Shown here: positions 2,828 to 64,000 of the stretch, piece by piece
Layout: every line of letters begins with the position of its first letter
Position numbering within the stretch: the first letter of the stretch is position 1
Source: Picochlorum sp. 'celeri'
Lineage: Eukaryota; Chlorophyta; Trebouxiophyceae
NCBI GenBank assembly: GCA_010909725.1
Contig: JAACMV010000011.1
Coordinates: forward strand, 1,115,436-1,179,435
DNA length: 64,000 bases
Reading direction: 5' to 3'
The notes under the pieces: model-generated
Seen by the model: only the letters and a program-made list of their open reading frames with translations
Databases searched by the model: none
Told to the model about the DNA's origin: nothing
Made by a program: the position numbers and the translations under genes

Positions 2828-4453
2828 TTATGAATCAGGGCGTGAGAAAGTTGATTGCTTCGGGTTCATGCGGAGCATTGATCTGGTCACCACATGTCGT
2901 TTTGACGACATGGCACCGAATTCGGGACCCATGTCGACGGGAGGGAGACGACCATTCTTTCCATGCGATGCTACATACCTTGGCATTGACTGTGCATCGT
3001 CAGTGTCATCTACCATCCCCTGCGCATGGTGTGGACGAAGTACTTGTTCTGAGAAGGCCCTTCTTCCAGCAGGGCACAAGGGACGCCTTGTAGGAATGAG
3101 GTCTCTTGTTTGCCCCATTCGCTCGTGTGACAGGGATCTCCCCCATCTGAAGGAAAGATTTGATTGCCTCAACCACACGTAGAATACGATGGCTCCTGCT
3201 AGTTTTCGGATTGCAGTCTTGACAAATTGCTGAGAGCAGGCCCACTGGGGAAGGATGATACCTTGAAGCCAATCTGAAATGATACCATACTTGGTGTAGA
3301 ATCCCAAATTATATTTGAATATATCCGAGAGATTCATGATAGATCGTTCCAGGATGAGCGATATGCCGAGCCATAGACAGACATAGGCCCTTGTCTCCAA
3401 GGATATTCCAAGAGACCCCATGGCAACGACCATAAGAATTCCAAACCCAAAAAACAATCCGTCCTGAAGACTGTACGATGAACCCAAAATTTTAGATAAT
3501 GCTCTATCTGTTCTTCTTTGATAGTCATGCATCGATTGAAAGAGTGATCCTATGGTAGTTGTGGACTCTTGAATGACTTTCAAATCATGCTTGATGGCCT
3601 CCTGCGCCATTGCCGCTTCGCTCGCTTCTTCTCTGATGGCTTGAAAGGTCCCATGAATTTTATTCGATGAACTTTCCATCATGTACTCTAATCGTTCCGT
3701 GGATTCTTGCACCAGTCTCATGGAATGGGAATATATTGAGGACATTGCTTGCATGACAACCTTTTGCCTCTGGAAATACTGTTCCATCATCTCGATCCCT
3801 GTCGACATATTTCGATACATGTTTTTATGCATATCTCGTTGATGACGAATGGTATCCCGAATGATGCCAAGATCCTTTTCAATATCTGTCATCCGCTGGG
3901 CAACTGCATGAGAGCCCCGGACAATTTTGTTGAGCATGTGCTCAGCAAACTTTTCAAAATCCTGGTTCTGAATGTACAGACACATCGTATCAATATGAGT
4001 CAGCATTTCTACATACATTGAATGTTCCCGATCGCTGAGCCGATTGACGCAAACCTTGAGCAGGTCACCCTGCCTGCATGTGAGCCTCTCTGCAGCTTCA
4101 TGATGCTCCTGAACATGAACGAGCTGGCAGAACAAGAGCATGAGTGCCAGTCTCGACTTCTCCGTAGGTCTTAAATCTCTACATTCTTTTTTAAGCGCGG
4201 ACAGCGCTTTACTATGACAATTTGTACCCCACAGATAATCCATCATGGTCTCCTGGTTTGAGGCTCTCTGGATGCCATCCAAAAACCCTCTTCCTCTCCT
4301 TTGTATGTCCACATCTGTCGATTTACAACTACTATACATACCACAAGATCCAGAGGAAAATGTGGGCAAGTATTCCACGGGTGTCTGAGAGTCAAAGGCA
4401 TTGTGAGAGGCCAGACACCCCAAAAATAACAGTATGACTGCCAACACACCCAT
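2828..4453 (-). CDS. GEX1/brambleberry/KAR5-like nuclear fusion (karyogamy) protein
   Basis: A 541-residue protein with signal peptide (residues 1-15), a Cys-rich N-terminal domain (the spaced CHSKALSALKKEC and LMLLFCQLV motifs, then THIDTMCLYIQNQDFEKFA), long coiled-coil stretches (about 170-320), and two or three hydrophobic segments (about 335-400 and 425-440), then a basic C-terminal tail. This order is that of the KAR5/brambleberry/GEX1 family, nuclear-envelope proteins needed for fusion of gamete nuclei in yeast, fish and plants. The assignment rests on the Cys pattern and architecture, not an alignment. No introns are seen. The last ~100 residues are low-similarity and could be affected by an unrecognised intron. 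It indicates that the lineage keeps a karyogamy gene. Confidence 0.75.
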   Translation of the reverse strand: MGVLAVILLFLGCLASHNAFDSQTPVEYLPTFSSGSCGMYSSCKSTDVDIQRRGRGFLDGIQRASNQETMMDYLWGTNCHSKALSALKKECRDLRPTEKSRLALMLLFCQLVHVQEHHEAAERLTCRQGDLLKVCVNRLSDREHSMYVEMLTHIDTMCLYIQNQDFEKFAEHMLNKIVRGSHAVAQRMTDIEKDLGIIRDTIRHQRDMHKNMYRNMSTGIEMMEQYFQRQKVVMQAMSSIYSHSMRLVQESTERLEYMMESSSNKIHGTFQAIREEASEAAMAQEAIKHDLKVIQESTTTIGSLFQSMHDYQRRTDRALSKILGSSYSLQDGLFFGFGILMVVAMGSLGISLETRAYVCLWLGISLILERSIMNLSDIFKYNLGFYTKYGIISDWLQGIILPQWACSQQFVKTAIRKLAGAIVFYVWLRQSNLSFRWGRSLSHERMGQTRDLIPTRRPLCPAGRRAFSEQVLRPHHAQGMVDDTDDAQSMPRYVASHGKNGRLPPVDMGPEFGAMSSKRHVVTRSMLRMNPKQSTFSRPDS

Positions 4454-4870
4454 GATTTGACATTCTATACATATTCTATAGACTCTGTATCAACTCAAAT
4501 ACCAACCGTAAGGCATCCCTCGTACATCAGGCGACTGTCTCCCAGTGGTCATAATGCCTGAATCTTCTGCTGCTTGCTGAATTTGTAAAGGCCATGCCCC
4601 AAGTTGACCGAGGATTTCAGAGACGCATATACCAACTATAGATTCCGAAATATTTTGTTATATGTTTTTATCATTCATCTGCAAATAGATGTATCCATAG
4701 TGCGTTGTTGTCATTGATTTTCCCAACCTCCAAGAAGCAATCACGGTGGTTGGTTCTGTTCCGAGGTTGAAACGGACACTTTCACCATTTCCACAGAATC
4801 TTTGCAGGTATACGCATTTACAATTTAAAAACTAGTATCTTTGAAAAGGAAGAACCCCTCAAGAGTCGCG
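4454..4870. promoter_or_regulatory. Divergent intergenic region between karyogamy-like and dynein light chain genes
   Basis: About 417 bp separates the two start codons, so both promoters must lie here. No open frame, tRNA or repeat is visible. The stretch is A+T-rich in its middle (around 4640-4700). No specific binding site can be supported. Confidence 0.4.
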
Positions 4871-5234
4871 ATGCAACAGCCAGCTTCAAACAGTCACTCC
4901 TCCGGAGCGAAATACGCCGTCAAAGCTAGTGATATGAGTGATGAAATGCAAAAAGATGCCATTGATATGGCTATAGAGGTACGTTTGTTGGTATCGATGC
5001 GGTAAAGAAGCTCAGCTGGTCCCAACTGGTGGTTGGTGTGTGCAGAGTACAAGCAAGTGGGACACAGAACGGGATATTGCCGCGAGTCTGAAGAAGGACT
5101 TTGACGCAAAATATGGCCCAACATGGCACTGCATCGTAGGATCCAACTTTGGGTCGTATGTGACGCATGAAAGTAGGCATTTCATTTACTTTTATTTGAA
5201 CAAACTGGCTATACTGCTGTACAAGAGCGGATGA
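4871..5234 (+). CDS. Dynein light chain LC8 type
   Basis: Exon 1 (4871-4978, 36 codons) and exon 2 (5046-5234) are joined across a 67-nt phase-0 intron (GTACGT...TGCAG) to give 98 residues. Exon 2 carries the LC8 signature almost unchanged: [20 protein letters not shown], then [13 protein letters not shown] and [18 protein letters not shown] at the C-terminus. LC8 is a dimeric hub that binds short peptide motifs in dynein intermediate chains and many other partners; it occurs in cells with and without flagella, so it does not by itself show motility. The first ~15 residues are a Ser/Gln-rich extension. A TGTAA motif (5250-5254) lies 16 nt after the stop. The gene converges on kinesin-13 with 42 bp between stop codons. 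Confidence 0.95.
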
Positions 5235-5249
5235 ATGCATGAAGTAGAT

Positions 5250-5254
5250 TGTAA
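5250..5254 (+). terminator. TGTAA poly(A) signal candidate for the dynein light chain gene
   Basis: TGTAA is the usual chlorophyte polyadenylation motif. It sits 16 nt after the stop codon. Assignment is by motif and position only. Confidence 0.45.
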
Positions 5255-5276
5255 CATGAAAAAACGTGCGCAACTT

Positions 5277-7490
5277 TTATTGTTTCAATGATTTCAAATG
5301 CTTTTTGTACAATGAGACCTTTTGTTGGAGAGATGCAATTGCTGCGGCTCTTTCAATCAGAACATTTCCCAGTTCTTCCACATACTCGTCCATGCCGATT
5401 GTGCTGTTGGTTGTTGGATCCGTCTTGGCCAACAAATCCATTTCCTGCCTGAGTCCAGCCATCATATTTTCAATATGCTGTCTATGGGCACATGCCAAAT
5501 CGTCTTCGTACAAGAGTCCACTGTCAACGTTTGAGTCCAAGGGAGAGCAGTTCTCCGGTGTGCTATCAGAATAGGTTGGCTCAACAGGGTGCGTCGTCAA
5601 CATGGACGGCCTTCCCCTGGAACTCTTGGGTATGACATCGTCTCTTCCGTGAGTGATCGCAATGCTCTTTCGTGTCGATTTGCTGCGACTTCTTGACGTC
5701 TTTGGAGCCGTATCATCTGGGGGGACAATGCTTGATCTTCTGCTCGTTCGAGCAGTTCGAGATCCATCACTGTTGGCATTTCCCCTGGTCGCTGTCGTGT
5801 TCACCGCAGGCACATCTGGCGCAGGGAGTTTCACCAATAATTTGGAAACCGCATCCGGCGAGGTGGGCTTACTCCTGGCAGAAGGCTTTGCTTCCTTCTT
5901 CATCTCCTTCACCCGATCAGCGTACCGAAGTGTGTTCAATGTGTGCTCACAAGAGCTCGAACTGGGGGAGATGTTTGCAATCATGACAGTTCGTGCATTC
6001 TTTCCGATGAATGAATCTCTTAGCACAGAAGTTAATTTTGATCCTCTGAAAGGAACATGGCCAGCATCCATATCCAGTGCCCGAATGCATTCTTTCAGTG
6101 CCAGCAAGCTCTTGTTGATTTCTGCCCCCTCAATCCGCGTCTGCTTATCGTTCTCGTATGTATCGGCCCCTCGCTCACTTCCAGCAAGATCAATAAATGA
6201 GAGCTTCCCTACAGTCTTCATTGGCACATTGTCGCTCTCCCCACCATACCTGGCACTAATTTTCCTATTATTCTTGGCGGCAATGGTCTCTTCTTTGGGT
6301 ACGCGTATGGAAAATGTCATGATTGAATGCGATCTTGAGGATTCATCATTCGCTCCAGTGGATCCAGTGGATCTAGAGCAAGCAGCATGATCACAAAGCT
6401 TGGACAGATCCTCCAGAGTATCGACATGTATCTCCTTCAAGCCCACAACCTGCACCCGTCGCTTGGCATCTTCCCGCACTTCCAGTCGTTGCCTATCATT
6501 CAGCAAATCGAAGACTTTTCCACCATAAATCTCGTAGCACGCAATATGTAAAGATGCATCCTGAAACTCTGGAACAGTGCGAGAGATTTGGAAGATATCA
6601 ACAGCTGCCCTCAAGGGCAGAGGCTGCATCGTATATGTCTTCCCAGACCCAGTCTGTCCATATGCAAAGCAAGTACCCCTACCATACTTGAATACGGTCG
6701 CGATCAATGGCCTCACCGTCTGAGCGTAGAGCGAGTCGTTGTCCACATCAGTATCAAACACATCGTCAAACCGAAACTGATGCGTCTCAATATACTTTGT
6801 CATATCTACCTTGGTCTTTGGCTCATACACAGTCAGTACGGCACCATCCGAGTCACATTGAATCACATCAATATCTCCCTTTTCGGCCTCTTTGTCATTC
6901 AGAGGTCTCTTCCTCACAATCACGCGAATCCGCGGAGGGTCAGTGATATGAGAGAGATTCAATAATGGTGCACCCACAACGTCGTGCTGGTACTCACGAC
7001 CCATCCTGTCTGGAGACGACGACAACAGTTCATCCCCTCGAACATCATCCATCAACGCCCCAGCTTCATTCACAATGGTATTCAAACCTCCGTTATCATC
7101 ATCCAGCAGAAACGAAGGATCCACGCTCAGATCAACCAAATCCACTCCATCCAAATCCTCCTCTTCCTCCTCCGACACCACCTCCCCACCATCCACAGCG
7201 CGAGTAGCCACGACCTCGTCGTCCTTTTCCTCCTGTACAGCATCGCCATCACCATGTCGTGCCTGCTCCACGTGCAGGTCCACATACGTGTCCAGGTCCT
7301 TGACCACTTTGAACAACGCCTGTTTATCCTCGATATCATACACCCCATACTTCTCATAGTCCTGAATCATCAATCCTCGAAATCGTTCGACATCCACCCC
7401 ACGGAATCCCTCCCTCAGGTGCTCCAACCCAGCTTCCGCCAAGACCCCTTGCACAACGCCACAGGTGCTTGACCTCTCTCCCATCGTCAT
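5277..7490 (-). CDS. Kinesin-13 family microtubule depolymerase
   Basis: The ATG at 7490-7488 is chosen because the protein then begins with the conserved short alpha-helical N-terminal segment (GLEHLREGFRGV, LMIQDYEKYGV) used by kinesin-13s; an in-frame extension to 7622 starts without ATG and lacks similarity. The product is about 737 residues. An acidic region (residues 80-170) precedes an internal motor domain (about 183-525): IRVIVRKRPL, the class-specific KVD in loop 2 (227-229), P-loop GQTGSGKT (278-285), switch I SSRSHS, switch II DLAGSERG, and NKSLLALKECIRAL. Kinesin-13s depolymerise microtubule ends in spindles and flagella. The tail has Ser/Arg-rich low-complexity sequence then a short coiled coil. 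No introns seen. Confidence 0.95.
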   Translation of the reverse strand: MTMGERSSTCGVVQGVLAEAGLEHLREGFRGVDVERFRGLMIQDYEKYGVYDIEDKQALFKVVKDLDTYVDLHVEQARHGDGDAVQEEKDDEVVATRAVDGGEVVSEEEEEDLDGVDLVDLSVDPSFLLDDDNGGLNTIVNEAGALMDDVRGDELLSSSPDRMGREYQHDVVGAPLLNLSHITDPPRIRVIVRKRPLNDKEAEKGDIDVIQCDSDGAVLTVYEPKTKVDMTKYIETHQFRFDDVFDTDVDNDSLYAQTVRPLIATVFKYGRGTCFAYGQTGSGKTYTMQPLPLRAAVDIFQISRTVPEFQDASLHIACYEIYGGKVFDLLNDRQRLEVREDAKRRVQVVGLKEIHVDTLEDLSKLCDHAACSRSTGSTGANDESSRSHSIMTFSIRVPKEETIAAKNNRKISARYGGESDNVPMKTVGKLSFIDLAGSERGADTYENDKQTRIEGAEINKSLLALKECIRALDMDAGHVPFRGSKLTSVLRDSFIGKNARTVMIANISPSSSSCEHTLNTLRYADRVKEMKKEAKPSARSKPTSPDAVSKLLVKLPAPDVPAVNTTATRGNANSDGSRTARTSRRSSIVPPDDTAPKTSRSRSKSTRKSIAITHGRDDVIPKSSRGRPSMLTTHPVEPTYSDSTPENCSPLDSNVDSGLLYEDDLACAHRQHIENMMAGLRQEMDLLAKTDPTTNSTIGMDEYVEELGNVLIERAAAIASLQQKVSLYKKHLKSLKQ

Positions 7491-26896: not shown

Positions 26897-26971
26897 TGAG
26901 CAAGCTCTATAATAGTACTTATTCGTACATCATATGCATATAGCTATGTGACTGTAGTGTTTTCCGTTGTA
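26897..26971 (-). ncRNA. Candidate omega-RNA 3' segment beyond the Fanzor stop
   Basis: In TnpB and Fanzor loci the guide RNA scaffold usually overlaps or follows the nuclease 3' end and ends in the guide. Only 75 bp separate the Fanzor stop from the PRMT1 stop, so any guide RNA must lie in the Fanzor 3' coding end, in this gap, and possibly in antisense PRMT1 sequence. This is placement by analogy; no conserved fold could be confirmed by eye. Confidence 0.2.
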
Positions 26972-29900
26972 TCACACGTCGGGGATGTCCTCCTCTGCTC
27001 GTGTCCGAGGCCTTTGGAAGACTGTTGGTTTCTCCTCGCCGTTGAGTTCCAACAGGAAAAACTTGGCGAGATTGATGGCTGCATTCACGTCTCGTTGCCA
27101 GAAAGCACGCTCACATCCATTGTTCATACAACGGCGTACTTTCCAGCGCTTGTGAAGCCCCACCGCGGGGGGGTCCTCCAATTTGGCATGGCAGGCACAG
27201 CAGTACTGGCTACTTCGGAACTCGCCAATCTCGATGAAACAGCACCTCTGCCGCAGCAGGTCCTTGAGGGCCCGAAAGCAGACCCTCTGTTTTCCGTGCT
27301 TCCCCGAGTTGATCGAGGCGTCCCCAAATACAACGACGGTCTTGCTCTGAGCCTCCCTGTCCTTCGTCCCGCAGATCCGTTCAACCATGGAGTCCAGCAT
27401 TCGTTGCGTCCTCGTGTACACAGAGAACCTTTGCCTCCGGAAACAGTTCTGGGAATAAAATCCATACACCGTGTTCAGGTGGCTATTGGTCGTTCTGCAG
27501 AACGCCAACATATCCCTTGCTGTTCCGACCTTTCTGGTGGGTGCCTCCTGTTTCCATGCCCCGATGCCTGGCCTGGCCTGGGACCACGCCCGTTCCAGCG
27601 CCTTTCGCTTGAGGATGCCCGCACGCGATTGCATCTCGTGGTTGGTCAGGCTCATCGTCTCGAACGGTTCGTAGTCCCCGTGTCGCTTGTTCTCCTGGCA
27701 GAGCTCCCTCATCTTGCCCTGCTCCAGCCTGATGCCCACGTGGCCATCGGGCCCTGGATCGAAGACCCATGCGTTGTCGGGCGATGCGGCCAGCAGGTCT
27801 TTTGCTCTGTCCAGATTCCCTCGACTGGAGACATTCGAGGACTGCGGGGTGCCTGGCCCCGCCCTACTCGTTCGTTTTCGCTTCCTCGGCTTTCCTGTCG
27901 AAGACCCCGTCGCCTTCTCCGCCGCCCTGGCCTTTATCCTTTCCTTTTCCTCCTCGTCGGCACGAATTTCGTCTTCCGTCTTCAGACGATAATACTGCAT
28001 CGACACGTCGACACCGTCCGTGGACAGCTGCCCTCCAAACAGCCACTGGTGTCCGTTTTGGCACCTTCTGACTTTGATATTGAACAGGGCCGTCCAACAG
28101 CACTCTTGATACCGCAACGCAGCCTTTTCCACTTCTTCTCGAGCATCCAAGTACTCTTGACTGCCATTCAATAACGCGTTCTTCCTGTCTGTCACTTCCT
28201 TGCACAGCTTCTTTTCCTTGTCAGACTTCTTGTACCGGTGCCGCTTTCCAGTCGGGGTCTGCTCAAATTCGAGCTTGCTTTTTTTCTTATTCTCGTCAAG
28301 TTCCTGTTTAACCTTCTGTTGCTCGTCGGTCAACCAGTTTTCTTTGTCCATGTCCACGATTCTCGACTCGATTGACTTCACCCTTTGTCGTGCCTCGCGC
28401 AGTGTCTCCCTGGGGCCGTGTATCGCTTCAGCAATGTCACTACACTCCAGTGCCAGGCCCTCTGCGAGGTCGGTGATAGCCACATTCGGAATGCTGATAT
28501 GACAGGCCCTCTTCTTTGCCAGGGGGAGGACGGACGGCACCTGGATTCGCTTTCCCCATGGGGCCTTTGCATCGTTGCCTCTCCTCGGAGCAACGAACAA
28601 GAACGACGAGCGGAGCTTGGGCAGAATGACCCTCTCCATATAGTCGGCAAAATCATTCTTGGTCATGTCGTAGTCGGCCAAGGACGAAGGGAGGCGCAGT
28701 TCAGACGAGATGCCATCGATCCAACCCACTTGGTCTTGGCTCAGGAATTCGGCACCACCCTTCTGACTCTGGTACAGAATCCTCTCCGACAGAAGGCACA
28801 AAATTTGTCCCCGATACCTGTCGTTTCGGTCCACGACACGTTGTCCGTTGTCCCCACTCCGGAATCCCTGGTCCGTGCGGGTGGTGAACACGTCTGGACC
28901 AGAACACTGTCGGAATATGTCCAGCGCATGCTTCACGTGGTGGACAAACTCCTTCTTAGTGAGCGATCCTTTCCTCAAATCTCGCTCAATGGCCACCGCC
29001 AGTTTTTCTCCTACACACATATTCACTAACTCGATGGCCTGCGGTGGGCTCCCCGGGCCGGACTGCTCAGAACGGTGGCGGTTGTATTCCATCACCTCAC
29101 CCGCAACGAAGTGCACGAATTCCATCATCTTGGCATTTTCCTTTCGGCCTTCCTGATCCGGGAATTTCTCCCGAATAGGGTTGACGATCGCCTCCTGGAT
29201 GTCTCGGACCTCTTCCTCGGTTAGATTCTTCAATCTGTCGTACCCTTCCTTCACACCACGGAAATCCACGTCCTCCCACACAGCGGCGGCAACGGCAGAC
29301 ACCAAAGAACGAAAGTCATCCGCGTACCGTGCCCCAAAGGTGCGTGCAAGCCGAACCTTGACAATCTTGCAAAGGTTGTGATACGCATTGTGGTGCAGAA
29401 TAATGTGCAAATTCTGAGCCTTTGCATCCGCCGCAGCTTTGAGGCAATGCCGACGCCAGGTCTTGTGACCGTCGACGTCCCATCTCAGAGACTCGCCTGC
29501 CTGAGGTAGTGGAGCCTCTTCTGCATACTGTCGGAGCGAGTCGTACAGGGGTGTCCTGATGTCCTGTTTGAGGCCGTCCCCATACCTGAGGTCTTTGATG
29601 GCATCAAAGATGTAGTTCCAAAAATTGTTGTAATCCATCTTCCCCAGATCAATACCTTCCTCGAGGCATCGGTACACGTGGTAGTGAGCAGCTTGGGTGG
29701 CTTCGACGGATATGTGGCCCACCATCGTGGCCGTGTCATACAGAAGCTCTTTGGTTCTGGATGTGCGAGCAATACCCCTCCACTGTCCCTTGTTCTTTCG
29801 GTTGTGGTCTTGATACCCGCCCAGAGATCCAGGTTTTATCACCTTCCTCACTTCTTGCGCGTATTTACTCTGTTTTCCCCGTGTTTTTCTATAGAGACCT

Positions 29901-30046
29901 AACTTTTCAGTCCTGAATTTTGCCTCTTTCCTGTGGTCTCCTGTAGGTCTGGACCCTGTTGGGGCATCACACACCATGTGGGGAGCCTCCCCTCCAGGCG
30001 TCGATGTTGCGACGGTAGGACCTTGATTAACGAACCCTTTTTCCAT
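26972..30046 (-). CDS. Fanzor: eukaryotic TnpB-like RNA-guided DNA nuclease
   Basis: A 1024-residue intronless frame from the ATG at 30046 (an upstream in-frame GTG is ignored). The C-terminal third shows the OrfB/TnpB RuvC fold: RuvC-I WVFDPGPDGH (Asp about 763), a central strand VVVFGDAS, then IEIGEFRSSQYCCACH, in which the Glu before FRSS (about 942) matches the relocated Fanzor catalytic Glu, a zinc finger (CxxC about 949-952 and CMNNGC about 973-978), and RuvC-III WQRDVNAAINLAKF (Asp about 986). The N-terminal two thirds is basic with Lys/Arg clusters; KPRKRKRTSR (about 730) looks like a nuclear localisation signal. Base composition is much GC-richer than the neighbours. Likely mobile-element derived. 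The nuclease class is clear; activity, guide RNA and Fanzor subgroup are inferred or unknown. Confidence 0.93.
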   Translation of the reverse strand: MEKGFVNQGPTVATSTPGGEAPHMVCDAPTGSRPTGDHRKEAKFRTEKLGLYRKTRGKQSKYAQEVRKVIKPGSLGGYQDHNRKNKGQWRGIARTSRTKELLYDTATMVGHISVEATQAAHYHVYRCLEEGIDLGKMDYNNFWNYIFDAIKDLRYGDGLKQDIRTPLYDSLRQYAEEAPLPQAGESLRWDVDGHKTWRRHCLKAAADAKAQNLHIILHHNAYHNLCKIVKVRLARTFGARYADDFRSLVSAVAAAVWEDVDFRGVKEGYDRLKNLTEEEVRDIQEAIVNPIREKFPDQEGRKENAKMMEFVHFVAGEVMEYNRHRSEQSGPGSPPQAIELVNMCVGEKLAVAIERDLRKGSLTKKEFVHHVKHALDIFRQCSGPDVFTTRTDQGFRSGDNGQRVVDRNDRYRGQILCLLSERILYQSQKGGAEFLSQDQVGWIDGISSELRLPSSLADYDMTKNDFADYMERVILPKLRSSFLFVAPRRGNDAKAPWGKRIQVPSVLPLAKKRACHISIPNVAITDLAEGLALECSDIAEAIHGPRETLREARQRVKSIESRIVDMDKENWLTDEQQKVKQELDENKKKSKLEFEQTPTGKRHRYKKSDKEKKLCKEVTDRKNALLNGSQEYLDAREEVEKAALRYQECCWTALFNIKVRRCQNGHQWLFGGQLSTDGVDVSMQYYRLKTEDEIRADEEEKERIKARAAEKATGSSTGKPRKRKRTSRAGPGTPQSSNVSSRGNLDRAKDLLAASPDNAWVFDPGPDGHVGIRLEQGKMRELCQENKRHGDYEPFETMSLTNHEMQSRAGILKRKALERAWSQARPGIGAWKQEAPTRKVGTARDMLAFCRTTNSHLNTVYGFYSQNCFRRQRFSVYTRTQRMLDSMVERICGTKDREAQSKTVVVFGDASINSGKHGKQRVCFRALKDLLRQRCCFIEIGEFRSSQYCCACHAKLEDPPAVGLHKRWKVRRCMNNGCERAFWQRDVNAAINLAKFFLLELNGEEKPTVFQRPRTRAEEDIPDV

Positions 30047-30935
30047 TGGCACTACCGTATTTTTATCTCTTCCTCCTCACACACGCGCCACGGTCCTTTT
30101 GTCACCTACACAAGGAAACTGATCGTAACTCCCCTGCTATCAAACGTGGTCCTTCATGTCTGTATGGGATTCGTACCTTGTGTGTGCAATAGTTGTCTCT
30201 GTAACCGTCCGAACAGGCTCGGCTGATCAGCGCGCGGCCTCCATGGGCGTTGATCAGAGCTGCTGGGTCAACGCCCGTGCAAAAAACTAACAACAACAAC
30301 TGGTATTCAACTCAACAACCAACCGCACGCCCAGCAACAACAGCACCGGCGGTCCTTTTATGGAACTGTAATTCGTATATAAACTCTACTACTTTGATAA
30401 TACGAGACGACGAGACCAAGGGTCGGAAACGCACGACCACGCCAGTCGTCGTCCGAGTCTGTACTATCGTTACTGTAGTAGCCTACCCCAGCGAAGCTAT
30501 GTTTCTTCGCGAGATGCCGTTGACAGACGTCAGTTTGGGACGAGATAATTCTCACAAAAAAAAAAAAAAAACAACCGAGTCTGACAGGAATTGTCACAGC
30601 ATATCAACTCCATGCATCGCCATGAGGCCTCATGGCACGAGTCGGATGTCATCACTAGGCTTGGGGCAGTGCTATCCGCAACAATTCCACCCTCCCCAAT
30701 CGAAGTTTTTCGTGTTTCAAGGAAGAACCCTTGCCTAGTTTGAGGGAGTTCCGCCTCTTTTCCTCTGAGATGAGACTCAAAAGCTGCAATTCTTTCTGCC
30801 TCTAGTTCATTGGTGTGTTCTTTGGCACGAAGACCTCCTTTTCCCTGGATAAAAGTTTTCTTTTAAACTGTTGGTTACACGTGCATGGTAAGAACAAAAA
30901 GAAAGAAAAAGAAAAAAGAAAATCAAAAATGAAAT
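30047..30935. other. Fanzor upstream region rich in inverted repeats
   Basis: About 889 bp between the Fanzor ATG and the phytoene synthase stop. No open frame is credible. Visible structure includes GGGCGTTGA/TCAACGCCC (30245-30253 and 30268-30276), an overlapping near-perfect 11-bp pair CTGATCAGCGC/GCGTTGATCAG (30223-30233 and 30247-30257), ACGACGA/TCGTCGT arms around 30406-30450, and a 17-A run near 30556-30572. The composition shifts from Fanzor-like GC-rich sequence to A+T-rich host-like sequence within this stretch, so one insertion border may lie here. Confidence 0.5.
30245..30276. repeat. Perfect 9-bp inverted repeat with 14-nt loop upstream of Fanzor
   Basis: GGGCGTTGA at 30245-30253 pairs with TCAACGCCC at 30268-30276. 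It could form a hairpin in RNA or mark an element subterminal repeat. Its role is unknown. Confidence 0.6.
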
Positions 30936-32180
30936 CTACTTTGACACTTTGATCGGCACTCTGGCAGCCATGAGTGCCAGAGGTAAACTGGCCAACTTTC
31001 TCCACTTTGGAACATAGGCTCTCTTTGTGAAATTATTGTATTCGTTGGCTTCTATACCATCCAGAATTTGGCGATACAATATCAGGGCTGACCATACTGG
31101 CCACCGAGCATCAGCGTCGAGCAGGTTCACTCCTGCCTCAGCCTCCGCAAAGTAATCTCGAGCTCTCTGGATCTGGAACTGCATGAATGCACGCCATCTA
31201 TCGTCTATCTTCCCAGTTGTTGGTGCAAACATGCCACGCAATACTTCGTCCTCTGAGATGCCAAACTTGTCCAGTTCATCCAGAGGGAGATACACTCTAG
31301 ACCTGGTCATGGCATCCTCTCCAACATCTCGAAGAATATTTGTCAGCTGGTTTGCTGTCCCTAACGCTAATGCCGCCTTATAAACTGGCTCTAATGGTCC
31401 CTTGTACGTAGGATCGACTCCCATGACTGGTGTGCTCATCAAGGCCACAGTTCCTGCCACGCGATAGCAATATTCGTATAATTCATCATAGTTTTCGTAT
31501 CTGTTCTTGTATAGATCCATTCTCATTCCTCCGATCATATCACGGAAAGGCTGGATATCCACGGGGAATTTGGTCAATGTGTCCGTAAGTGTGGCATCTA
31601 GGGAGTCATATGGGCGCCCATCAAACAGGGCTTCCAGCCTCTCCTCCCACCTGTCCAGTGCTGCGGGGGTGATTCTCGCGGAATTTGGCCCATCAACCAA
31701 TTCGTCTGTTCTCCTGCACCAGACGTAGATCGCCCAAATAGCACGCGCTTTCTCTGGTGTCATGAGTTGTGTTCCTAGGTAAAATGTCTTTGCATATTCA
31801 GAGGTTACCTCTCCTGACCTCGAGTAGGCCTCCTCCAACATCTGCCCCGACCATTTATGTGAAACTGGCAATCCATTTGGAAAAGCTTTGTGCAACTCGA
31901 TCTGAGACCTCGTGGCTGCAGCCTCAATTTCATGCCCAGACATTGGTTGTGCCACTGGAACTTTCCCACTGCTTGCAGGTGACGAAGGTGTGCTCGACGA
32001 TACTTTGGCTGCTGCTGCTGATGTCTTGCGAGTTTGGGAATCTTTCGAGCCACTCCCACCCACCGATGCAGATGCGCATTGGACTCTCCTTCCCACAAGG
32101 GCACACGACCTGCTGGTGAAGCCGGGTCTACAGTCTAGAGCCCCGTGCATAGACATCGATATCGGCAATGCATGTGCCAT
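30936..32180 (-). CDS. PSY: Phytoene synthase, plastid
   Basis: A single-exon 414-residue protein. Residues 1-70 form a Ser/Ala/Arg-rich plastid transit peptide. The squalene/phytoene synthase fold has both Asp-rich motifs, DELVD (159-163) and the later DVGED in [10 protein letters not shown], plus [32 protein letters not shown] and RVYLPLDEL. It condenses two geranylgeranyl diphosphates into phytoene, the first committed step of carotenoid synthesis. Length fits plant and algal PSY. Its stop is close to the inverted-repeat-rich Fanzor upstream region, so the Fanzor insertion sits downstream of PSY without breaking it. Confidence 0.97.
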
Positions 32181-32579
32181 CCTCCTATTAAATAGTCTCT
32201 AGACGCAGATGGATAGTGCCAAATCCCGTTTCAGGACAGAAATCCAGAACCTGTTATCCTGTTCTGACGGACTCACTCCTTGAGGCTTCGACGCGTATCT
32301 TCTGCAAAACGACATGAGACTGGTGAGTTGACGCACATTGTATTCCACATAGATGAAATAATATTTCTAAGAGGGTGCATCGGACAATGGGCAAAGACGA
32401 GCCAGGTACGTCACCGTTGGGGGCGGTGCAAACGTTACTCGAGTGCACGAGGTAGGCCTCTTTTACATACCTAATGATACCTCTCAAATACGAAATGAAA
32501 ATAAAACCTCGATAATTGGTTCTAAGCCAACGCCATCGATCAATCAATTCTCAAGTCACTGGATCGGTCAATCAATCAA

Positions 32580-57973: not shown

Positions 57974-58023
57974 ATGACAATTTTAACGACAATTTTAACG
58001 ACAATTTTAACGACAATTTTAAC
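57974..58023. repeat. GACAATTTTAAC 12-bp tandem repeat
   Basis: Four consecutive units just after a left-arm copy (57941-57961) that lacks its own right arm. The inside of each arm copy holds a different tandem repeat. Confidence 0.9.
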
Positions 58024-58049
58024 GATTTCAACCGAGTGCTTTTTGCTGT

Positions 58050-58595
58050 AATTGAACACAATAAAAAATCGTGACCTTGCCAAACTTGCCAAACTTGTCA
58101 AACTTGTCGCGTGGTCGCATTTTTTTATTGTGTCTTTTTTACGGCATTATAATACGACGATCGTTGTTGAAATTGTGTCTCCGGTCGAATGGATGACAGG
58201 AGCGGACACAGTTCAGTGAGACCCACAGGGTTGAACAAGCTAGCGTGCTCTTGGCACAACACACTCACTGCCACCCTCCTGCTTGGTTTTCTTTCTTCTG
58301 TCGTCTCGTTGACTTGATTCGATACTATTTTTAGATGGTGGACTGACAATCAACGATAAATACTGAAACCCACCAGGAGAAGAGGTTCCTCGACGTCGTG
58401 GCATGTTGCCGTGGCTTTGTCGTGAACGGTTGGGGGGCACAGTTTTCTCCCTCTGTAGTCATGCGCTGGTGTTATACTATCAAAATTGATTTATTATTAT
58501 GAATACATGAATCGTATTCATGGCTCTTCTTTTTCTTATCCCCCTGGGGAGCGACTCCCAAATGCTGCGCTGCGAGTGGAATTGACGACGACATG
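58050..58595. repeat. Diverged ~0.75-kb repeat family, copy 2
   Basis: It shares block order with 57032-57783, including the arm AATTGAACACAATAAAAAAT, the TCTCCGGTCGAATGGATGAC block and the final GAATTGACGACGA. Between copies 1 and 2 a third arm-only copy is present at 57921-57962. Confidence 0.65.
58056..58133. repeat. Short inverted-repeat element (B) enclosing a CTTGCCAAA-type minisatellite
   Basis: Left arm ACACAATAAAAAATCGTGACC (58056-58076) pairs with right arm GGTCGCATTTTTTTATTGTGT (58113-58133). The middle holds CTTGCCAAA/CTTGTCAAA units. Arms match element A closely while the cores are unrelated. Confidence 0.75.
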
Positions 58596-59750
58596 TCTAT
58601 AGTAGAACATTAGCTCATGTCACGATGCCAAATTTTTGATGCGTCGAATGTTGCGGTCCCTTGCGTGATGAGGTCCCAGATACAGTGGTGGCAATAACGC
58701 ATGGGTGACGCATGCTTGTTCCAAATTCACGGACTGATTTCGCATCACGAGGTATGATGACGCATCCTGTGAGGTATGCTGTGCCTCGTCCAAGTTGGGG
58801 GCAGTGACGGCAATATTGAGAGGGGCATTGAATTATATATAGATCTTACCAGGCGATAATTTGCCCCTAGTATGGACAGTACATGTTGTAGGCCAGTGGT
58901 TGTGGGATGCACCTCTGGGCCTCTTGTGGTGAAACTACCCCTTTGTTTGTCGCCGAACGTTGCACTTTCCCTCTGTGCTTTCCGCTCTTAATTTTTCTTT
59001 TCTTTTTCGAACAGATGGATCGATTTGTCCTGCGAGCCTGGCGCGTGGCTTGTTTTTTTTCTTCTCTTGCCTCGGTTTCGGGCTGTGCCTGCTGTTGCAA
59101 TCATCTTTTCAACTCCTTTTCTTGTTGCTTGGCAGCCTTTTGTACCTCGACTATTCGACACGGTGTCAAATACTAGTGGAGCCCCATTCATTAACCAACC
59201 TATTGGTGAGGGTGAGCTCACCTCCTTTCTTGTCACAGGCTCTTTTTGTATTGTTGTTCCAATCAATGTTGATGACTGGTAAACAAACGCATGGAAATAC
59301 ATTCTATTTGTTCTTTGTTTTCGTTTTGTTTGTTGTTGTGTAGCAGAGAAGCCTTTTTTTTTTTCTTCTGTAGTTGTAGCTCCTACATTCATTCATCCAG
59401 GTCAGAGCAGCTCTTGTGATGGCCACATTCGCTAGTCTATTGGTGGACAGGCAACACCTATCATTTCAATCAAAACCAGATTGATTCTACTACTATATAT
59501 CTTTTGTTCTGTTCATTTTGTACAAGGATACGACATACTACTAGAAATACTGCTCAAAAAGCAGTCGCGTGTCAGGACAGCAGGGTGTGTTGCATGATTC
59601 CCCCAACAGATCTCTCTGCAGCAGATGTGTGTGTGTCCACCTCCATCCTATATTCACACGTTGTTCTACTTACCATACGATAGAATAGATGGATTAGAAC
59701 ATATTTTTTGATTATTCGTGTTATTGTTGTGTTTTCTGAATCCACGAATC
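58596..59750. other. Gene-poor intergenic stretch
   Basis: About 1.15 kb without recognisable genes. Short open frames around 58867-59343 are Cys/Phe/Ser-rich, differ between frames and show no family, so they are not called. Direct ACGCATG.TGACGCAT words occur around 58700-58760. T-rich composition begins near 58980. Confidence 0.5.
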
Positions 59751-62700
59751 AGTGTGTGTATGGATCTGTTTTGCTGTTTTGTTGGTTCTGTGGACGGTGG
59801 GTGAGCACACATTGTGTGCTATTGCTATTGCTACTACTACTCTCTTCGTTGTGTTTCTACTTCTCGGGCAATAGCACTGATTATTGATGAAGAACAAAAG
59901 GTGTAGTAGAGTAGTAGAGCTTTTCTTTCTTCCAAGGTCTCCCTCTCATAGGGAGGGTAGATGGACTTAAGGCATCGGCCCGACGTGGTATTGGAATCGA
60001 TCGGTGAGGTCGGGCTTCTAATTTTTTTCAGGCGTGTCCGTCCGTCAATGAGGACAATAAAAAAGGGCGACCATGAGACCGCTCGGCCACACTCGTCGTG
60101 CTTTTTGGTGGCATGTTTTTCATTCTTCTTCCCATCCCATCACACAAGAGGTTTGACCGAGGATACCTGTATCTACTGGGTTTCTGCCCGGTGGCTCCCC
60201 TTGAAAAATTAGTCGACTGATGCATCCGGTCCAGGCACCCCTCTGACCGGTCACCAGGACTGGCTAAGCCTGCTTTCTTTGCAGCAAAATAAACACGACG
60301 AGATCTCCCTCATTCAAAGAAGCGTCGCAGTTGTATCCTACTAATCTAATTGCAACTCCTCATGAAGTAAGACCATGTGATACTTCCTCCAGCATTGGTG
60401 CAAGGCTACTCCAGTGCTTGCCACAGCTTGCTTGTTGTTGTTGTTGTTGTGAAGACGACGATTTGTTTCCATTTCATTCTTGTTTCATGATGTCTTTTCC
60501 TTATTTATTCATTTCACAGGTATTATTATAACTCTTTCTCTAGAGAATCTCACATGTTGTCTCTGTAGGGTCGCTCCGGGTTGTTCTTCTACTTGTGTGC
60601 ATGAGACTTGTGTGCTTTGTTCTGTCCTGTTATTATTGGTTGGTATTATTGCTTGTGTGGATTGTTGTACATGTTATTATTATTACTACTACTACTACTA
60701 TTATGAGATATTTACTTTCTTCTTCTTTTGACTGCTTTGCTTCTTTGTTGGTGTGTTGTCTCGTGTTGTAGCAGCAGCAATAGTAGCAATAGCAGATCTT
60801 GTGGTGTGTGGTGTCCGAGGAGGAGTTGTTTCACGTGGTGTGCGACGCTTTGATGAGTACTGTTTTTTAATTATACAACACACCCTTCTTTTGATTGGTT
60901 TGGTTGGTATATTTTTGGTGGTGGTCCCAGTTAAGTCAAGGAAGGGGTGGTGATGGGAAGATCGCCATTCTTCTTCTTGTTGGGAGAAGCTCTCCCTCTC
61001 TTCTTCAGACATGTGGCAGCAGACCTCTTTGTTGTTTTGCACTGGGTGTGCGACGTTTTTTTCAATTATGGTGTGTATTATTATTATTTTTATTGGTATT
61101 CTTCTTCTTCTTGTTCTTACTTACTTACTCGTACCTTAATATTGTGTCCTTCTGTTGTTGTTGTTGTTGTGAAGAAGAAGAAGAAGAAGAAGAAGAAGAA
61201 GAAGATGACAGAGATTCTTCTCATTCATGCATAGCCTAGTATAGATTGTCGTTGTGTCATTATCATACCATAATGAGATTTTTATCTTTTGATTTTGCTT
61301 TGCTTTTGTGTTAGTCTTTCTTCTTCTTTGCTGTACTGTAACCCAACGAGGTCTTCCATTTTTTTCCAAAGTAGCGTCGCAATTGTGTATATATCTTATC
61401 CTCATTGCGACTCCTCATGAAGTCGACGTTCAAGTAAGTACGTACGTACGTACGCGTGCCTTCTTGTATGATAAGATATTGAAATACTCCAAAACCAACG
61501 GTGTGAGGTTGGTTCCTCTAGTAGTGCTTGTTGTTGTTGTTGTTGTGAAACAAAGACAATACGTTTTTCATTCTTTCTCGTTTCATGATTTTTTCATGTC
61601 TTTTATTTATTTATTTATTTTTTTCATATATACTACTACTACTACTACTACTACTATTATTGCACCACTTACTCTCTCTATCTCTCAGATGTTGTCTGTG
61701 AGTGTATCCTATCTCTCTCCAGGTTGTTCTTCTTGTCGTGTGTTTCATCGTGTCGTGTCGTGTCGTGTTATTCTTGGTGGTGTGGATTATTGTTGTGCAT
61801 GTTATTGTTGTCATTATCAATGAAGAGGAGTATTATGAGCTATTTTGTTGTTATTTTTGGTTGGTGTGTTTTTTTTGGTTAGGGTATTTTGGTGTGTGTG
61901 TGTGTGGAGATATGTATGGAGCTGCTTTGCTGTTTTGTTGGTTGACTCTGTGGATGGTGGGTGAGCACACATTGTGTGCTATTGCGACTACTACTCCCTT
62001 CGTTCTTTTCTACCTCTCGAGCAGCTACAGCAGTAATTATTGTTGTTGTTTTTAGTAGTAAACCAACAATAATAGTTGTAGAGAAGAAGAAGAACAAAAG
62101 GTGTAGCTCTTCTTCAAAGGTCTTTTTTATCCATCTTCTTATGGAGAGGGTAGATAGACTGAAGGCATCGGTCCGACATGGTATTGGACCGATCGGTGAA
62201 GTCGACCTTTTTTCTTTTTTTTTTCAGGCGTGTCCGTCCGTAAATGAGGATAATAAAAAATGACGACCATGAAACCACACGCTTTTACCCGCTCGGCCAC
62301 ACTCAGCGTGCTTTTTTCATCTCCCATCACAAGGAAAATTTGACCGGGGATAATGATGGTAGTTTCTTTTTCCGTTGTTCTTTTTCGTCTTCCTCCTATC
62401 GAAGACCTCTTCTGATGGGAGCGCCTGGATATGTGGAGCACACAGCAGTCAGGAGGAGAGAGTCTCTCTTTGCTGGGTAAAAACACGACGAGATCTTCCC
62501 CATTCAAAGACGCTGCGCAGTTGCATACTACTATTACTATCCTGATTGCAACTCATCAAGTCTATGTAAGTAAGTAAGTAAGTAAGTACGCGTGCCTTGC
62601 ATGATAAGATACTGAAATACTCAACTATGGGTGTGACATACCTCCAGTGCTTGCCACAGCTTACTTCTTGTTGTTGTTGTTGTTGTGAAGCAGACGATTT

Positions 62701-63790
62701 GTTTTCATTCCATTCTTGTTTCATGATGTCTTTTCCTTATTTATTCATTTCACAGGTATTGTTATAACTCTTTCTCTAGAGAATCTCACATGTTGTCTGT
62801 GTAGGGTAGCTCCTGGTTCTGCTTGTGCATGCATGAGACTTGTGTGCTTTGTTCTGTTCTGTTCTGTTATTATTGGTTGGTATTATTGTTCGTGTAGATT
62901 GTTGTGCATGTTGTTATCATTACTACTACTACTACTACTACTATTATGAGATATCTACTTTCTCCTCTTGATTGCTCTGCTTCTTTGGTTGGTTGGTGTG
63001 TGTTGTCTAGTGTTGTAGCAGCAGTAGCAGAGCTCGTCGTGTGTGGTGCCCGAGTTGTTGTTTCACGTAGTGTGCAACGCTTTGATGAGTGCTTTTTTTT
63101 TTGTTGGTTACAACACCCTTTTGATTGGTTTGGTTGGTATATTTTTGGTGGTCCCAGTCAAGTCAAGGGGGTGATGGGAAGATCGCCATTCTTCTTCTTG
63201 TTCCGAGAAGCTCCCTCTTCTTCAGACATGTGGCAGCAGACCACTGTTTGTTGTTTTGCCCTGGGTGTGCGACGGTTTTTTTTTTATGATGGGTGTTTAT
63301 TATTATTATTCTTTAAAATTGGTATTCTTCTTATCTTCTTACTCTTACTTACTATTGTGTCCTTCTGTTGTTGTTGTTGTTGTTGTGAAGAAGAAGACAG
63401 ATATTCTTTTCATTCACGCATCGCATAGCATAGTATAGATTGTTGTTGTGTCATTATCATTCTTATTATGAGATTTTTATCTTTTGATTTTTTCTTTGGA
63501 TTTTGTGTTGGTTGTTGTTGTTGTTGTCTCTTGTAGTAGGAGGAGGAGTAGGAGGAGGAGGAGCAGCAGTAGTAGTAGCAGAGCTTGTGGTGTGCCGTGT
63601 CTTTTGTTGCTGTTGTTGTTGTTGTCTCGTGTAGTAGTAGTAGGAGGAGGAGGAGGAGGAGCAGCAGTAGTAGCAGAGCTTGTGGTGTGCCGTGTCTTTT
63701 GCTGGTGTGGATTATTGTTGTCATTATCAATGAAGAGGAGTATTATGAGCTATTTTTTTGTTATTTTGGCGTGTTTTTTGGTTGGCGTGT
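59751..63790. repeat. T/G-rich higher-order repeat array (units of about 1-2.2 kb)
   Basis: Several blocks recur in the same order. TTTCATGATGTCTTTTCCTT...CTCACATGTTGTC is at 60483 and 62719. The block with AGACATGTGGCAGCAGACC is at 61004 and 63223. GGCATCGG.CCGAC.TGGTATTGG...GGCGTGTCCGTCCG is at 59970 and 62163. AAGAGGAGTATTATGAGCTATTT is at 61823 and 63731, and GTGGGTGAGCACACATTGTG is at 59799 and 61949. Most blocks repeat at an offset of about 2.2 kb (1.9 kb near the end). The plus strand is strongly T-rich with TTG, TAC and GAA microsatellites. No gene is supported. Confidence 0.75.
61171..61203. repeat. (GAA)11 microsatellite
   Basis: An uninterrupted GAA/AGA run directly after a TTG run (61154-61170), inside the higher-order array. 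Confidence 0.95.
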
Positions 63791-64000
63791 GTTTTTTGGT
63801 TAGGGTATTTTGGTCTTTTTGGTGTGTTTTTTCTTGGCTTAATTTTTGATTTTTGTGATGTTTTCTTCTTTTTGGGTAGTTTATTATTTTTTTTTTAGAA
63901 ATTGTGTTAATTTTTGTTTGTGTGGCGGAGTGGGTGCTAGTACTGCGTTATTTACCCTCATTACCCTTGGCCCGGGAGAACGACGTAGGCACAGGGTATA
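63791..64000. other. Window end, no gene identified
   Basis: T-rich sequence gives way after 63960 to a more balanced stretch with GGCCCGGGAGAACGACG. It may be the start of another unit or gene; nothing can be called. Confidence 0.4.

What the first reader, a model, noticed from the sequence alone, without database searches (positions are those of the whole stretch)
26972..30046. Complete-looking Fanzor nuclease gene in a green-algal-type genome
The frame is intact over 1024 codons and keeps all elements expected for cleavage: RuvC-I DPG (about 763), the relocated Glu before FRSS (about 942), a four-Cys zinc finger and RuvC-III RDVNAAINL (about 986). In canonical TnpB the catalytic Glu sits on the central strand, but here that strand reads VVVFGDAS without Glu, which fits the rearranged Fanzor active site. 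The protein is larger than most TnpB and has a Lys/Arg NLS-like cluster. No transposase lies beside it. This is the best candidate in the window for an RNA-guided system not described in this organism.
Basis: partly seen in the sequence, partly recalled or inferred. Interest (0 to 1): 0.88.

Follow-up and report, generated by a model that had tools for sequence, protein, structure and literature searches.

The report
Fanzor1 nuclease gene in green alga
A tiny marine green alga carries an intact-looking gene for Fanzor1, a eukaryotic relative of CRISPR nucleases, in a repeated element whose 3' end may also encode the guide RNA; it is a real but not fundamentally new kind of system.

The parts
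26972..30046 (-). Fanzor1 coding sequence, 1024 aa (stop 26972-26974)
26908..30624 (-). repeated element carrying the gene: extent of homology between the C11 copy and the copies on C10/C16 (ends uncertain by about 15 bp)
   Evidence: homology with C19 on the left-end side stops at 30614
30589..30614 (-). left-end motif CATGGAGTTGATATGCTGTGACAATT: 4 places in the genome with up to 3 mismatches, reversed-pattern control 0
26929..26952 (-). right-end motif GTCACATNGCTACATGCATATGAT: 13 places in the genome with up to 3 mismatches, reversed-pattern control 0
26908..27166 (-). candidate omega-RNA scaffold: last 64 codons with synonymous constraint plus the 3' UTR to the right end (inferred function)
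27098..27146 (-). 49-nt hairpin inside the CDS; same predicted fold in the 5 copies with a (near) full-length frame
28013..28021 (-). TDG motif of the Fanzor1 WED domain (T676-G678)
   Evidence: motif named in PMC10711439
27872..27886 (-). RKRKR basic cluster (721-725), NLS-like
   Evidence: function inferred
27758..27760 (-). D763, RuvC-I (DPG)
27221..27223 (-). E942, glutamate at the alternative position
27113..27202 (-). C4 zinc finger C949/C952/C973/C978
27089..27091 (-). D986, RuvC-III (RDVNAAINL)

Best explanation
The gene encodes a Fanzor1, an RNA-guided DNA endonuclease of a mobile element. Shown here by sequence and models: a Fanzor1-type REC/WED lobe and a RuvC domain with a complete D-E-D triad in the Fanzor arrangement, plus a C4 zinc finger, in a multi-copy element. 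Inferred: the 3' end of the transcript (last ~64 codons plus ~60 nt to the right end) is processed into an omega-RNA whose guide is the host sequence just beyond the right end; the nuclease cuts the matching empty site next to a TAM, and repair from a copy-bearing chromosome keeps or restores the element. No transposase was detected in the element, so moves would need one supplied in trans.
Against: No RNA or activity data. Left and right ends share only a weak inverted repeat (p 0.02 with the C10 ends; p 0.75 and 0.25 under two scorings with the window's ends) and I saw no target-site duplication, so mobility rests on copy number. Another segment of the gene (codons -270 to -204 from the end) folds more stably than the 3' end relative to its own control in C11 (z -2.5) and C10 (z -3.0), though not in C14 (-0.2), so the folding signal is not specific in two of three copies. 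The C11 and C14 3' blocks may share a short gene-conversion tract. Full-length model confidence is low (pLDDT 57.9). PF07282 scores below its cut-off (23.1 against 26.3 bits). The confidence was lowered from 0.87 to 0.82 on re-checking.
Confidence: 0.82

Rival explanations
1. A Fanzor1 protein that is no longer active: a relic of a mobile element whose frame has not yet broken.
For: No transposase found, left-end motif at only 4 places, decayed 3' fragments, a degenerate C18 allele of the C14 copy, only moderate dN/dS.
Against: The catalytic residues are kept and the frame is open in C11, C19 and C14; the C14 relative is 96% identical over 748 residues to a protein of another Picochlorum strain, so such frames persist.
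Confidence: 0.25
2. A domesticated host gene rather than a mobile element, kept for a cellular use such as defence or gene regulation.
For: Present on both homologues at two sites; in the window it lies between PRMT1-like and phytoene synthase genes.
Against: Copies 95-96% identical at an unlinked site plus fragments with a shared right end look like a mobile repeat.
Confidence: 0.08
3. The 3' synonymous constraint reflects DNA sites needed for transposition, or a gene-conversion tract, not an omega-RNA.
For: The right-end motif is conserved at 13 places and would be needed by a transposase; C11 and C14 are 59 of 60 identical over one block (codons 965-984); the folding signal is not unique in C11 and C10.
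Against: The block lies about 190-240 nt inside the element and folds into a hairpin with the same predicted fold in 5 of 5 (near) full-length copies; of 6 fragment loci tested (C27, C4 and the pairs C18b/C14b, C3/C23) it is clearly weaker in 5 and slightly changed in C27 (-18.2 against -20.0 kcal/mol). The omega-RNA of GtFz1 overlaps C-terminal codons (PMC10432273 passages).
Confidence: 0.3

Closest known systems
SpuFz1 (Spizellomyces punctatus Fanzor1)
   Same: RuvC fold and aligned D-E-D triad, REC/WED fold; single-ORF locus (PMC10432273 passages)
   Different: SpuFz1 is smaller (its residue numbers run to 633) and its locus has well-conserved inverted repeats; here the ends are not clear inverted repeats and the candidate RNA overlaps the coding sequence
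GtFz1 (Guillardia theta Fanzor1)
   Same: the only PDB hit of the six-sequence family profile; omega-RNA overlaps 17 C-terminal codons
   Different: the overlap suggested here is about 64 codons
Fanzor of Chlamydomonas, Volvox, Chlorella (PMC3627910 passages) and Auxenochlorella (PMC12633428 passages)
   Same: Fanzor genes or repeats in green algae
   Different: no sequence comparison made here
Picochlorum sp. BPE23 hypothetical proteins M9434_000408 (P0003) and M9434_003399 (P0010)
   Same: P0003 is 96% identical to the C14 relative over 748 residues and 53% to the window protein over 757; P0010 is 99% identical over 731 residues to the Fanzor beside a transposase on C20
   Different: named hypothetical protein in the source; P0003 as annotated ends shortly after the DPG motif

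Membership tests
Fanzor1 | DPG motif in RuvC-I | tested here: met
   D763-P764-G765; D763 and G765 invariant, P764 at 90% or more in 60 rows
Fanzor1 | catalytic Glu at the alternative position, none on the central strand | tested here: met
   VVVFGDAS without Glu; E942 aligned with SpuFz1 E541 (E541 named)
Fanzor1 | RuvC-III Asp and C4 zinc finger | tested here: met
   D986, C949/C952/C973/C978; PF07282 at 8e-5 but below its gathering score
Fanzor1 | TDG motif in the WED domain | tested here: met
   T676-D677-G678; D677 and G678 invariant, T676 at 90% or more in 60 rows
Fanzor1 | Fanzor1 REC/WED and RuvC folds | tested here: met
Fanzor1 | carried by a eukaryotic transposon with TIRs/TSDs | tested here: inconclusive
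   repeated element, but weak TIR and no TSD seen
Fanzor1 | omega-RNA from the right end | tested here: inconclusive
   synonymous constraint and stable fold at the 3' end, the latter not unique in the gene; no Rfam match; no RNA data
Fanzor1 | RNA-guided DNA cleavage | not testable with these tools
   needs protein and RNA
Fanzor2 | association with an IS607 TnpA and closer match to Fanzor2 structures | tested here: inconclusive

The most novel reading that the evidence does not exclude
The element spreads between homologous chromosomes of a diploid alga by RNA-guided homing: its Fanzor, guided by an omega-RNA that largely overlaps the coding sequence, cuts the empty allele and the element is copied across. 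The C10/C16 pair, with 7 SNPs in 3731 bases inside against 48 in 6114 outside and a low-divergence tract that ends near the element borders, would be a footprint of such an event.
Probability: 0.12. Interest if true: 0.75.

Novelty: new member of a known kind. Interest (0 to 1): 0.42.

Why it matters
What Fanzors do for their elements or hosts in nature is, to my knowledge, still open. P. celeri has a phased diploid genome and Cas9 editing has been reported in it (titles in the listing; passages), so a native Fanzor1 with a predicted guide RNA and defined allelic sites would make the role of a eukaryotic RNA-guided nuclease directly testable. It also adds a branch about 30% identical to eight unnamed database proteins (P0001, P0002, P0004-P0009) for enzyme mining.

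Tried and rejected
Full-length AlphaFold2 with 10 sequences gave a poor RuvC region, so the RuvC part was modelled alone with 50 sequences. The single-sequence PDB search was nearly blind (9cer at E 4.5). NCBIfam and PADLOC gave nothing; Rfam nothing. The search for a clean empty site failed: the C18 allele of the C14 copy holds a degenerate relative. Terminal inverted repeats: weak. A homing test on the second Fanzor family was uninformative: at C8/C17 the element scores equal and the 2581-base flank loses only 12 bits; at C2/C22 the element loses 8 bits and the 2390-base flank 17 bits, so flanks there are nearly identical too. I could not tell how often 3.7-kb tracts are as poor in SNPs as the C10/C16 element, and the C11/C19 pair (27 of 3703 inside, 26 of 3328 outside) does not show the effect. 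A paper search for Fanzor with homing or homologous chromosome (248 papers hold two of three terms, 10 listed, one of which holds Fanzor) gave no report of Fanzor homing in the listing; a preprint on RNA-guided gene drive of insertion sequences in plasmids is in the listing (not read), so homing by such nucleases is not a new idea as such. Canonical TnpB and Fanzor2 were considered less likely for the reasons in the membership table.

Full report
OBSERVATION. The ORF is on the minus strand, 26972-30052 from a GTG and 30046 from the first ATG, giving 1024 aa. A 1026-codon open frame with this motif content is not a chance ORF: related frames are open in copies 99%, 95-96% and 58% identical, and relatives of about 30% identity exist in the protein database (in one search only the 7993 candidates sharing most words were scored).

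HOST. The window is C11:1115436-1179435 of a 27,412,692-base, 30-contig genome and ends at the contig end. The Picochlorum celeri paper gives 27.43 Mbp in two sets of 15 scaffolds (PMC7225527, part 1 of 2 of the text read). Picochlorum sp. BPE23 holds the named relatives. I infer P. celeri.

ELEMENT. Homology between the window copy and the C10/C16 copies covers about 26908-30624. The 45 scored matches (of 56 candidates) include five (near) full-length frames of this family: C11 and C19 (allelic, open), C10 and C16 (allelic, each with one 1-base insertion in a homopolymer run) and C14 (58%, open). The assembly was polished with long reads only, so the two insertions may be consensus errors. 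The other members of the family seen are fragments, mostly of the 3' end and many near contig ends. The right-end motif occurs at 13 places and the left-end motif at 4, with 0 in the reversed-pattern control, so I found no partner element with the same left end. The ends share at best a weak inverted repeat. Of 22 other window ORFs scanned with Pfam none is a transposase, though 4 had no family; the flanks are a PRMT1-like gene and phytoene synthase.

CANDIDATE GUIDE RNA. Between the C11 and C14 copies, 4-fold sites agree at 0.36 overall (222 sites) but 0.70 (20 sites) in codons 961-1024. Among same-residue codons 32 of 46 are identical after codon 960 and 215 of 502 before (Fisher 4e-4 for one of eight cuts tried; a scan permutation gives 0.005). 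The 271 nt at the 3' end fold at z -3.56 against dinucleotide shuffles (1 of 200 as stable), and the last 67 codon positions fold better than codon-usage-matched versions at z -2.3 (C11), -2.3 (C10) and -3.0 (C14). Against this, of four further segments tested per gene one (codons -270 to -204 from the end) gives z -2.5 in C11 and -3.0 in C10, as strong as the 3' end or stronger; in C14 none stands out. A 49-nt hairpin has the same predicted fold in all five (near) full-length copies; in six fragment loci that reach it (of the 18 places; the other seven were not tested) it is clearly weaker in five and slightly changed in the sixth. Published omega-RNAs come from the transposon right end, and that of GtFz1 overlaps 17 codons (PMC10432273 passages). 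I therefore propose that the omega-RNA runs from about 27166 or 27146 to the right end and takes its guide from the flank. The copies are related, so they are not independent tests, and a gene-conversion tract remains possible.

SELECTION AND HOMING. dN/dS is 0.0048/0.0125 for C11/C19, 0.0203/0.0567 for C11/C10 and 0.0210/0.0653 for C11/C16 (open parts only for C10 and C16); for C11/C14 dS is saturated. C10/C16 differ at 7 of 3731 sites inside the element and 48 of 6114 outside (Fisher 6e-5, sites treated as independent), the SNP-poor tract running from 2470 to 6614 of L011 with the element at 2844-6575. C11/C19 show no such contrast: 27 of 3703 inside, 26 of 3328 outside. Two sites of the second Fanzor family could not test the idea because their flanks are also nearly identical; that also shows that SNP-poor stretches occur elsewhere. 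Homing is thus a possibility, not a result.

KNOWN OR NEW. PMC3627910 (passages) lists Fanzor in Volvox, Chlamydomonas and Chlorella; PMC12633428 (passages) reports a Fanzor repeat in Auxenochlorella. Searches for Picochlorum with Fanzor (3 papers, 2 listed) and with TnpB (2 papers, 1 listed) gave no description of a Picochlorum Fanzor in the passages I read. So the protein is a new member of a known kind. Interest is moderate: a native system in a tractable diploid host, with a concrete RNA prediction.

Noticed in passing
L021:3889-6464 (C8) and 19 further places: A second Fanzor1 family (about 800 aa) in a 2.58-kb element with mariner-like inverted ends (TTACAGTAAAATTTT...; superfamily recalled, not tested): 20 long copies among 23 rows, 18 of them 99-100% and 2 at 98% identical to the query, many near contig ends.
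   Followed up: partly
L020:3629-9507 (C20): A relative of that second family (50% aa identity) lies next to a DDE_1 transposase ORF (PF03184), and a left-end stretch matches the second family's at 83% over 53 bases: a possible autonomous partner.
   Followed up: partly
window 30614-32570, compared with C19 (L010): On C19 a 1.7-kb segment carrying the phytoene synthase gene is inverted, with one breakpoint at the left end of the Fanzor element (window 30614).
   Followed up: partly
L051:987-1021 (C2), matching motif on C22; C8:512482 and C17:513387: Right-end remnants: on C2 a 36-bp stretch of the right end without Fanzor coding sequence in the 1.2 kb read, and on C8/C17 a decayed 3' fragment with the motif.
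   Followed up: partly
L049:4465-5965 and L050 (C18): The allele of the open C14 copy is a degenerate relative: its 3' end is 97% identical over 74 bases, part of the 5' region 70%, and the frame between is lost.
   Followed up: yes
window 58000-64000: GC falls to about 0.40-0.44 with a negative AT skew toward the contig end, with a 98-base tandem repeat at 63513-63722.
   Followed up: no
P0003 (BPE23 M9434_000408): The annotated BPE23 protein stops shortly after the DPG motif with an unrelated tail, perhaps a gene-model error; not tested.
   Followed up: no
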